The position numbers and the translations under genes are program-made. From a virus, in the IMG/VR virus record IMGVR_UViG_3300030106_002741, positions 4,550-30,441 of that record: DNA of 25,892 nucleotides; one strand, 5' to 3'. Position 1 is the first letter of the stretch. Every line of letters begins with the position of its first letter. Below, in pieces: positions 7,226 through 9,741 of this stretch. The notes under the pieces are model-generated. The model ran no database searches. It saw only the letters and a program-made list of their open reading frames with translations, and was not told where the DNA came from.

Positions 7226-7645
7226 ATGCCAAAAAGCAAAATAGCTAAAAAAAAACTTTTTAGGGAAAGTTCTAAACTTAATCAAAGGTACGTAAAAAGA
7301 AACTTTCTTAAACACCTTAGAACTAAACTTTTAAACTTTTGTAAAAGGTACGACATCTTTGAAAAAGAATTGTTGTTTATGCTTTGGGCATACGACCTTG
7401 AGTTTTGGACTATAGATTACGCAGCTAAAGAATATCAGTATTCCAAAAAACATATAGCAGAAAGGATAATATACCCGTTAGTGAAAGAAGGGTACGCATA
7501 CAAACATTTCGATAAATTAACCCCATCGCAAACGTATGAGGACCATTTATTCAGAGATGAGCTAAAAATGAATTATAGGGTGAGGTATGCTTTAACACAA
7601 AAAGCAAGATTGCTGGTGCAGTCTTTCTATAGGGAGTTAGAGTAA
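7226..7645 (+). CDS. winged-helix DNA-binding protein on opposite strand
   Basis: A 139-aa basic protein. Residues 47-140 have a MarR-like winged-helix layout: ELLFMLWAYDLEFWTIDYAA, a recognition segment YSKKHIAERIIYPLVKEGY, a wing, and NYRVRYALTQKARLLVQ leading into a last helix. This suggests a transcription regulator or DNA-binding architectural protein. It is transcribed against its neighbours, starts five bases from a divergent gene and ends one base before the thermonuclease stop, so its mRNA must be antisense to late messages. No TAnnTTTG box was found just upstream. Its target is unknown; the repeats at 14052-14178 are candidates. Confidence 0.72.
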   Translation: MPKSKIAKKKLFRESSKLNQRYVKRNFLKHLRTKLLNFCKRYDIFEKELLFMLWAYDLEFWTIDYAAKEYQYSKKHIAERIIYPLVKEGYAYKHFDKLTPSQTYEDHLFRDELKMNYRVRYALTQKARLLVQSFYRELE

Positions 7646-8014: not shown

Positions 8015-8530
8015 TTAAGCTTCTCCAGCTAAGTCTTTTAGATCTAATGGATCTAATATTAAGCACTCAGCAAAGTCTCTGTAAGCTATAGTTACTTCTT
8101 CCCCAGCTTCTAAAGCTTTTGCTATAGCAGGGTATATACGCATGTAAGCCTTAGTACTCTTTCCTATAAATCCGTTTTTCTTTATGTCGTTGTTTTCTTG
8201 CGTATCACCCACAAGTAAACATCCCGCAGTGTCCTCATCAGTATTACCACAGTGAATAAGGATATATTTAAAATTAGGGACATCACACACTTCAAGCATT
8301 CCAATATGTATGTCAGCAAATCTTTTACCGTACTTGGAGTGGTATCCACCTTCTCTTCTAAACTTGATTTGATACTCTCCTTCAGGTATACAAGTTTCTC
8401 CCCACACCTTTTCTTCACGGCTCTCATCTTCGAGAGTATAGCATAAAAATTTTCTTTCATCGGTTACGTCAAATAAAATACCGTTAGTCGAATCTACTCC
8501 TTTGTTGAATCTTATTACTTCTAGCTTCAT
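8015..8530 (-). CDS. DUF5675 family protein, lysis candidate
   Basis: A 171-aa protein that matches the DUF5675 layout: a strand-rich start (MKLEVIRF), then TLEDE, IPEGEYQI, FADIHIG and the signature LIHCGNTDEDTAGCLLVGD (H93, G95, C104). The H-x-G ... GC arrangement recalls the catalytic His and Cys of YkuD-type L,D-transpeptidases, so it may act on peptidoglycan; this link is an inference. DUF5675 genes often sit near holins and lysins in phages. Here the holin is over 16 kb away. The start ATG is 8530. A promoter box at 8686-8693 lies about 155 bases upstream. Confidence 0.78.
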   Translation of the reverse strand: MKLEVIRFNKGVDSTNGILFDVTDERKFLCYTLEDESREEKVWGETCIPEGEYQIKFRREGGYHSKYGKRFADIHIGMLEVCDVPNFKYILIHCGNTDEDTAGCLLVGDTQENNDIKKNGFIGKSTKAYMRIYPAIAKALEAGEEVTIAYRDFAECLILDPLDLKDLAGEA

Positions 8531-8615
8531 TCTTAAGTTTATTTAATCTAATTTTTTCAGCCTCTTGAGCATGATCTTTTCTTTTCTTTATTGGGTTGAA
8601 ATAAAACTTTTTCAA
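8484..8615 (-). CDS. possible 43-aa basic protein with TTG start
   Basis: A minus-strand frame beginning at TTG 8615 reads MKKFYFNPIKKRKDHAQEAE and ends in the first codons of DUF5675, overlapping that gene by 47 bases. The composition (Lys-rich, amphipathic) is protein-like, and TTG starts are used elsewhere in this genome. No ATG is available, and no Shine-Dalgarno sequence is present. It could equally be a chance frame in the leader of DUF5675. Confidence 0.3.
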   Translation of the reverse strand: MKKFYFNPIKKRKDHAQEAEKIRLNKLKNEARSNKIQQRSRFD

Positions 8616-8680
8616 GTTTTTAACACTTTTTTAACATTTTTTTTTGGATTTACCAATTATTTGTTTTTTATTGTGATCAA

Positions 8681-8700
8681 CAAGTCAAATATACGACTTG
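8681..8700 (-). promoter_or_regulatory. TATATTTG -7 box inside a perfect palindrome
   Basis: CAAGTC (8681-8686) and GACTTG (8695-8700) form a perfect 6-bp inverted repeat with an eight-base spacer. On the minus strand TATATTTG (8693-8686) lies across it and matches the Bacteroidetes -7 consensus. It would drive DUF5675 and the thermonuclease. A TTG exists 25 bp upstream instead of 20. The palindrome is well placed to be a repressor operator. It also lies 28 bases before the opposite-strand secreted-protein gene, so one protein could control both. Confidence 0.45.
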
Positions 8701-8727
8701 ATTTTTTAACTTTTAATTCAATATGTT

Positions 8728-9312
8728 ATGAGAAATTTATTTTTATCAGCCGCAGCTTTACTAGCCATAACAGTAAATGCGCAAGACGAACCAACAAGAG
8801 GTAGCAGTGTAGTTATAAGCTGTGCTTTCAATCAAGGTGGAGTTGACAGATCTTTAATTATGTGGGAAGTTTGGAAAGATCCTAACTACGATTCAAACTG
8901 CATAAATTGCATAGATAATGACCCTACATACTACTGGACAACTCCTTATGACGAAAGAGTTCGTCGATCATACAGGTACGATCCAGTTATTGATGATGAG
9001 TTTATCGCTAGGTCAATAGAGAGTAACAGGGTGCAAACTGCTGAGCATGATGGTCAAATCATTATGACCTTTGAATGTAATGGGTTTGGTATATACCACG
9101 TATACGCTCGCAATAAAGAAACTGGAGAGTTGTTGGGGGCAACGGCTGCTAATATTGGTGAGGGCTTTTACTACAGAAGGACTTTAGGTATAAGAAGAAA
9201 CATCAAGCTTGAAGCTGGTCAAAAGCACTGCGGGTTAAGTATAGCTGGGGAAGACACATACATGTACAACTGCTTTACTGATGAGCCGTACCACGGTTGG
9301 GAGTTTGAGTAA
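8728..9312 (+). CDS. secreted cysteine-rich protein (signal peptide), moron-like
   Basis: A 194-aa protein with a classic Sec signal peptide: MRN, hydrophobic core LFLSAAALLAITV, then NAQ with cleavage near residue 18-19. The mature part has six cysteines (C32, C58, C61, C117, C168, C182), including a CINC pair, consistent with disulfides in the periplasm or outside the cell. No enzyme motif or lipobox was seen. It lies alone on the plus strand between minus-strand late genes and ends four bases from the next gene's stop, the pattern of a lysogenic-conversion or 'moron' gene. Superinfection exclusion or host envelope change are plausible roles, not shown. Confidence 0.75.
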   Translation: MRNLFLSAAALLAITVNAQDEPTRGSSVVISCAFNQGGVDRSLIMWEVWKDPNYDSNCINCIDNDPTYYWTTPYDERVRRSYRYDPVIDDEFIARSIESNRVQTAEHDGQIIMTFECNGFGIYHVYARNKETGELLGATAANIGEGFYYRRTLGIRRNIKLEAGQKHCGLSIAGEDTYMYNCFTDEPYHGWEFE

Positions 9313-9315
9313 AGA

Positions 9316-9741
9316 TTACAGGAATCGAGGGTTAGAGTGAACGTTTTGTTCTTTAATCTTATTTACTCTAAGTGATTGAAGAGCAGCCTTTAATCTCTTA
9401 AAAGGATTGATTGTACCTCTTCTATATGACATGTTTATCGCGCCATCTTCAGTTCCTTCGTATTTTTTCTTATAGTCTTTCCCTTTTAGAATGGTAACAC
9501 CGCCACCTCCAGTAGATGAAGCACCACCTCGTCTTTCTCTAATCTTTTTTATTTCTCCAGTTCTAAGCAACTCCTCCCGCTTTTTTGGATTTAGGCCTTC
9601 GAGACGCATTACATCAAATGCCTCTTCGTCAGTTGGTAAGTGCTTAACGGTTAATCTCATAGGTTTAGTGTCTTTATAAGCTTTTATAAGATCCTTTAAA
9701 GAAAACTTACCCCCATCCTTATATTTTTTTACGACTATCAT
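9316..9741 (-). CDS. basic late protein with N-terminal GG motif, 141 aa
   Basis: Starts MIVVKKYKDGGKFSLKDL, has a flexible centre with a glycine cluster (GGASSTGGGG) and a basic C-terminus. No known domain was recognised. Its ATG overlaps the stop of the 432-aa protein by four bases, so the two are co-translated and probably act together in the virion. The YKDGGKF element is one of a family of di-glycine motifs shared among the late proteins here. Confidence 0.65.
   Translation of the reverse strand: MIVVKKYKDGGKFSLKDLIKAYKDTKPMRLTVKHLPTDEEAFDVMRLEGLNPKKREELLRTGEIKKIRERRGGASSTGGGGVTILKGKDYKKKYEGTEDGAINMSYRRGTINPFKRLKAALQSLRVNKIKEQNVHSNPRFL

What the first reader, a model, noticed from the sequence alone, without database searches (positions are those of the whole stretch)
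8728..9312. Secreted six-cysteine protein encoded against the late operon
It has a textbook signal peptide, alone on the plus strand within a minus-strand operon. This is how moron genes appear. A secreted phage product may block superinfection or change the host surface.
Basis: partly seen in the sequence, partly recalled or inferred. Interest (0 to 1): 0.65.

Follow-up and report, generated by a model that had tools for sequence, protein, structure and literature searches.

The report
Swappable secreted protein of flavobacterial phages
A virus of marine Bacteroidetes carries a gene for an exported protein at a fixed spot where sister viruses carry different, unrelated exported proteins or none, which is the pattern expected of weapons or shields traded between competing viruses, although what the protein does has not been shown.

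Summary
The gene is real. Window 8728-9312 (+) encodes a 194-aa Sec protein with a signal peptide cleaved before Gln (Bacteroidetes Q-rule), conserved under purifying selection (dN/dS 0.14-0.22). Two parts of the observation fail. It is not alone on the plus strand: 7226-7645 (+) is a second, conserved plus-strand gene. Six cysteines do not define the family: distant homologues have 2-5.

The new result is the site. In 23 of 77 distinct related contigs, a gene for an exported protein starts 173-198 bp from the DUF5675 gene, always against the late operon, behind near-constant DNA. The protein belongs to one of five families with no detectable relationship (A, this one; B-E; 55-197 aa). Near-identical backgrounds carry different cargo (L054/L240: 98% identical flank, family A versus E). 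Divergent backgrounds carry similar cargo (window/L002: cargo dS 0.30, flanks 0.80-2.86). The intergenic DNA holds a Bacteroidetes -7 box reading back into the late operon, inside a covarying inverted repeat.

So it is moron-like: a swap site for exported accessory proteins. Superinfection exclusion from the periplasm is my preferred function, unproven (about 0.4). No homologue was found in named phages, Pfam or NCBIfam, nor in one narrow scan of sequenced genomes.

The parts
8728..9312 (+). Family A exported cargo protein, 194 aa: signal peptide residues 1-18, mature protein from Gln19
8728..8781 (+). Signal-peptide coding segment (MRNLFLSAAALLAITVNA)
   Evidence: leader recognisable across cargo families A-D
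8531..8727 (.). Near-constant intergenic region (21.8% GC) between the divergent cargo gene and DUF5675 gene; 98% identical between L054 and L240 although their cargo differs
8681..8700 (.). Inverted repeat CAAGTC-AAATATAC-GACTTG whose arms covary between contigs; operator- or hairpin-like
8686..8693 (-). TATATTTG, a Bacteroidetes-type -7 promoter box (TAnnTTTG) reading into the DUF5675 late operon; 22 of 23 cargo-bearing sites, 2 of 54 sites without cargo
8015..8530 (-). DUF5675 protein (PF18925), first large gene of the neighbouring late block; anchor used for the site survey
9316..9741 (-). Convergent late gene (141 aa), stop 3 bp from the cargo gene's stop; beyond its first residues it is replaced by unrelated sequence in L003

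Best explanation
The gene is one allele of a swappable accessory ('moron'-type) site in a large clade of marine Bacteroidetes podovirus-like phages. The site has a constant part (intergenic DNA with a promoter that reads into the downstream late genes, plus the start of a Sec signal peptide) and a variable part (the exported protein, at least five families). Recombination through the constant part and start codon exchanges the cargo. Shown by sequence: the gene, its export signal, its purifying selection, the cargo families, and the exchange. Inferred: the protein is exported by host Sec, cut before Gln19 and probably capped with pyroglutamate, and then acts in the periplasm or at the outer membrane, since no lipobox, C-terminal anchor or type IX sorting domain was seen. 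Inferred and least certain: it acts as a superinfection-exclusion or related envelope-protecting factor made during infection, binding either a host receptor or transporter or an entry component of competing phages, which would explain why phages keep trading it. Confidence: about 0.85 for the swap site, about 0.4 for the function.
For: Homologues at 82-92% in four contigs; family A members at 29-35% identity in further contigs, each with a signal peptide and mature Gln1. Site survey: 23 of 77 distinct DUF5675 upstream regions carry an opposite-strand exported gene starting 173-198 bp away, in families A-E; the families are not related by profile comparison. Cargo swapped on near-identical backgrounds: L054/L240 DUF5675 98% and intergenic 98%, cargo A versus E; L220/L002 95% and 93%, E versus A; L208/L203 91% and 91%, C versus D; identity collapses at the ATG. 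Similar cargo on different backgrounds: window/L002 cargo dS 0.30 versus 0.80, 1.87 and 2.86 for three flanking genes; window/L003 the reverse, cargo dS 0.35 versus 0.02-0.05. Purifying selection, dN/dS 0.14-0.22. Precedents: Q-rule exported proteins of unknown function in Porphyromonas phages (PMC10367356); T4 Spackle, an early periplasmic disulfide protein (PMC7677548); T5 Llp, a periplasmic lipoprotein that jams a TonB-dependent transporter (PMC9586334).
Against: No functional data. The AlphaFold models are poor (pLDDT 31 and 45) and no fold matched (best E 0.27 in PDB, 0.09 in BFVD). No plus-strand promoter for the cargo gene was identified, so early expression is a guess. The far side of the swap boundary often lies in variable late genes too, so part of the 'cassette' pattern may be general mosaicism at an operon junction. 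Purifying rather than positive selection is seen within close family A alleles. Known small exclusion factors (Llp, Cor, Spackle) are smaller and unrelated in sequence.
Confidence: 0.42

Rival explanations
1. The exported proteins act in lysis: they help or time envelope disruption together with the adjacent DUF5675 protein, for example as an inhibitor, antiholin-like sensor or outer-membrane disruptor.
For: They sit divergently beside the DUF5675 gene in every case (the survey was anchored on that gene). The sequence motif HCGNT...GCLLVG of DUF5675 recalls L,D-transpeptidase active sites (my reading, not tested), so that gene could act on peptidoglycan. T4 Spackle loss also affects lysis timing (PMC7677548).
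Against: 54 of 77 sites have DUF5675 and no exported partner. Opposite strand, unrelated cargo families and free exchange do not fit a core lysis part. No lipobox or C-terminal membrane anchor, as spanins would have.
Confidence: 0.15
2. The proteins act on the host or its environment rather than on other phages: they modify or protect the infected cell's surface, block a periplasmic host enzyme, or scavenge a nutrient.
For: The same phage group encodes other host-like exported proteins, including type IX secretion cargo with a CHU_C domain and a GCMD-repeat exported protein in this phage (L008). Family C has a sub-threshold plastocyanin-like match (E 0.087).
Against: No host homologue of family A was found in one scan of sequenced prokaryote genomes (only two short patterns, so weak evidence). 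Rapid exchange among phages fits a phage-phage contest at least as well.
Confidence: 0.25
3. The protein is a minor virion or decoration protein.
For: It lies among late structural genes, and the swap boundary often continues into them. Some Bacteroidetes phage capsid proteins are predicted to have signal peptides (PMC10367356).
Against: It is transcribed against the late genes; it has a Q-rule signal peptide; it is absent from most related sites; five unrelated families would have to play the same role.
Confidence: 0.1

Closest known systems
Q-rule signal-peptide proteins of Porphyromonas gingivalis phages (proposed Nixviridae; PMC10367356)
   Same: Phage-encoded proteins of unknown function with Bacteroidetes-type signal peptides exposing Gln after cleavage.
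   Different: Those are in temperate phages and are not described as alternatives at one site; no sequence relation was shown or tested here.
T4 Spackle (gp61.3)
   Same: Small phage protein exported to the periplasm, containing a disulfide; a model for exclusion from inside the envelope.
   Different: 75-aa mature helical bundle; no sequence similarity detected; the present gene's target and timing are unknown.
T5 Llp / T1 Cor superinfection-exclusion lipoproteins
   Same: Phage accessory proteins acting in the envelope; Cor and Llp are a diverse set doing one job.
   Different: Llp and Cor are lipoproteins; the present protein is cut by signal peptidase I with no lipobox.
Morons (phage accessory genes with their own signals, e.g. 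Pseudomonas phage morons)
   Same: Gene against or between operons, sporadic, not needed for the basic gene order, likely to change the host.
   Different: Here the cargo varies behind a shared leader and the neighbouring DNA supplies a promoter back into the late operon; lysogeny is not shown.

Membership tests
Moron-type phage accessory gene | Sporadic presence at a fixed place in otherwise collinear relatives | tested here: met
   23 of 77 distinct sites carry it; sample is biased by how contigs were found
Moron-type phage accessory gene | Own promoter and terminator | tested here: inconclusive
   Conserved intergenic element, but the clear -7 box reads the other way; one terminator-like hairpin, no more than in shuffles
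Moron-type phage accessory gene | Expressed independently of the lytic late genes | not testable with these tools
   needs RNA-seq
Sec/SPI exported protein of Bacteroidetes (Q-rule) | Signal peptide with Gln at +1 | tested here: met
   All 8 family A members; cargo families B, C and D too; family E lacks it. No SignalP run
Superinfection-exclusion lipoprotein (Llp/Cor) | Lipobox with Cys after the signal peptide | tested here: not met
   Residue +1 is Gln in all family A members
Spackle | Sequence homology to gp61.3 or its fold | tested here: inconclusive
   No credible PDB sequence relative and no fold match; the model is too poor to exclude a fold relation
Superinfection-exclusion factor (by function) | Expression blocks infection by the same or related phages | not testable with these tools
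   needs an infection assay
Type IX secretion cargo | C-terminal T9SS sorting domain | tested here: not met
   No Pfam or NCBIfam hit in the window protein; a different gene in L004 and L054 has one

The most novel reading that the evidence does not exclude
A dedicated recombination site in a widespread clade of marine Bacteroidetes phages, in which a constant promoter-plus-leader module is fused to interchangeable exported effectors that exclude rival phages from the infected cell, analogous in layout to polymorphic effector or immunity loci.
Probability: 0.3. Interest if true: 0.75.

Novelty: new variant of a known kind. Interest (0 to 1): 0.55.

Why it matters
These phages are common in marine data (the terminase search hit its 600-stretch limit) and their hosts are probably important polymer degraders. 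A short, easily recognised site that marks exported accessory proteins gives a ready list of unknown phage proteins to test for exclusion of rival phages or control of the host envelope, in a phylum where such phage proteins are hardly studied. It also suggests how a gene can be exchanged against an operon without breaking it: the exchanged site comes with a promoter box that reads on into the late genes.

Tried and rejected
Pfam, NCBIfam and PHROGs gave nothing for the protein except a weak PHROG of unknown function (phrog_17180, E 0.0099). tblastn against 50,697 phage records: none even at E 10; a distant family A member and a family C protein also none. AlphaFold twice: too poor to use; fold searches not significant. 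I considered an immunoglobulin-like or cupredoxin-like fold for families A, C and D from sequence patterns; profile comparison did not link the families, so I do not claim it. I first took the conserved CAAATATAC element as the cargo promoter; the same TATATTTG box stands in other minus-strand intergenic regions of this phage, directly after terminator-like hairpins, so I now read it as a late promoter for the neighbour. Rfam: nothing.

Full report
What is there. The ORF at 8728-9312 (+) encodes 194 aa with a leader MRNLFLSAAALLAITVNA followed by QDEP. The cut before Gln is the Bacteroidetes Q-rule, in which signal peptidase I exposes a Gln that is cyclised to pyroglutamate (PMC5837995). The window belongs to a 59-kb virus record whose portal and terminase match phage head-and-packaging families and whose cultured relatives by portal infect Flavobacterium, Cellulophaga and Tenacibaculum at about 30% identity. 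The host is therefore most likely a member of the Bacteroidetes, probably a flavobacterium (inference).

Corrections to the observation. The gene is not the only plus-strand gene in the late block: 7226-7645 (+) encodes a conserved 139-aa protein (dN/dS 0.04-0.07) found against the late genes in many related contigs. Six cysteines occur only in the closest homologues; the count falls to 5 in L004 and to 4, 5, 5 and 2 in distant ones, so the cysteine pattern is not the family's mark. The conserved core is instead W-E-V-W, N(R/K)..T, G-I-Y-H and T-G...G.T.

Relatives. Close homologues (82-92%) lie in four IMG/VR contigs. None was found in 50,697 phage records or in one scan of GTDB genomes (which used only two short patterns and so would miss distant relatives). 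A profile search over contigs fetched by terminase and GroES found two distant members, and further scans gave L243 and L258. All stand at the same place: divergent from the DUF5675 gene, convergent with a late structural gene.

The site. Taking the DUF5675 gene as anchor, I compared 77 distinct upstream regions. In 23 an opposite-strand gene with a signal peptide starts 173-198 bp away; in 54 there is none. The 23 genes fall in five families: A (this one, 173-197 aa), B (124 aa), C (145-146 aa), D (99 aa) and E (55-58 aa). Profile comparison of the mature parts finds no relation between families, though the alignments are shallow. In A-D the residue after the predicted cut is Gln; in E it is not. 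The sample was drawn by similarity to this phage and partly by the gene itself, so 23 of 77 is not a population frequency.

Exchange. L054 and L240 share 98% of DUF5675 and 98% of the intergenic DNA but carry A and E; L220 and L002 (95%, 93%) carry E and A; L208 and L203 (91%, 91%) carry C and D. In these pairs identity runs at about 83-100% up to the start codon and then drops to background within 30-60 bp. Conversely, the window and L002 share a cargo with dS 0.30 while three flanking genes differ by dS 0.80, 1.87 and 2.86, and the window and L003 have nearly identical flanks (dS 0.02-0.05) but a cargo at dS 0.35. L181 and L208 likewise share cargo C at 88% on backgrounds 74-76% alike. So cargo moves between genomes. 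In several pairs the divergence continues beyond the cargo into late genes, so the site is also a mosaic junction; in the window/L002 pair both flanks diverge and the cargo alone is shared.

The intergenic element. CAAATATAC stands about 40 bp before the cargo ATG in 22 of 23 cargo-bearing sites (CAAAAATAC in L181) and in 2 of 54 without cargo. On the minus strand it reads GTATATTTG, matching the Bacteroidetes -7 box TAnnTTTG (consensus from my own knowledge); the same GTATATTTG stands in other minus-strand intergenic regions of this phage, three times directly or shortly after a terminator-like hairpin. I read it as a promoter that starts the DUF5675 late operon afresh where the cargo gene interrupts it; in sites without cargo, a same-strand reading frame usually ends within about 0-110 bp of DUF5675. 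It lies inside an inverted repeat whose arms vary together: CAAGTC/GACTTG, CAGTC/GACTG, CAATTC/GAATTG, CAGTT/AACTG; mean stem 4.5 pairs against 3.3 when arms are shuffled between contigs (maximum 3.9 in 500 shuffles; relatedness of the sequences inflates such a test). This suggests an operator or an RNA hairpin. I found no convincing plus-strand promoter for the cargo gene.

Mechanism. Shown: gene, leader, selection, site, exchange. Inferred: Sec export, Gln exposure, periplasmic or outer-membrane residence (no lipobox, no T9SS sorting domain). Preferred function: exclusion of competing phages from inside the envelope, as T4 Spackle and T5 Llp do by different means (PMC7677548, PMC9586334). 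The argument is only that variety plus exchange plus export fits phage-phage competition; nothing here measures it. Lysis control, action on host or environment, and a virion role are the rivals.

Novelty. Exported Q-rule proteins in Bacteroidetes phages have been reported (PMC10367356), and morons and exclusion proteins are known kinds. The protein families found here have no convincing match in the libraries searched (families A-D tested; family E not tested), and the interchangeable site behind a shared leader is, as far as my limited literature search goes, undescribed. I rate it a new variant of a known kind.

Noticed in passing
L004 1272-2411 (-); also L054 8362-9561 (+) and about 30 other loci: Phage-encoded protein with signal peptide and a type IX secretion sorting domain (CHU_C PF13585 E 9e-15; TIGR04131 above cut-off), next to a 120-aa exported protein with a dockerin-like tail, between the HNH endonuclease and terminase genes: apparently phage cargo for the host type IX secretion system.
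   Followed up: partly
L008 2-2440 (-) (record bases 1-2440, outside the window): This phage encodes an exported protein of over 800 aa with many GCMDPTAFNYD-type cysteine repeats, directly after collagen-like fibre genes and cut by the contig end; no relative found in GTDB genomes by pattern scan.
   Followed up: partly
window 7226-7645 (+): Conserved 139-aa plus-strand protein, widespread against the late operon in this clade; its sequence looks like a small winged-helix regulator (no Pfam or PHROG hit).
   Followed up: partly
window 9316-9741 (-): Late gene whose N-terminus is kept in L003 but whose remainder is replaced by unrelated sequence, so the gene beside the cargo site is itself mosaic.
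   Followed up: no
window 8505-8615 (-): A short conserved basic reading frame (LKKFYFNPIKKRKDHAQEAEKIRLNKLKNEA...) from TTG at 8615 overlaps the start of the DUF5675 gene; possibly a small gene.
   Followed up: no
L010 6981-7319 (-): Small thioredoxin-like protein with weak Pfam support (E 0.0023, below cut-off) and a possible N-terminal signal peptide.
   Followed up: no
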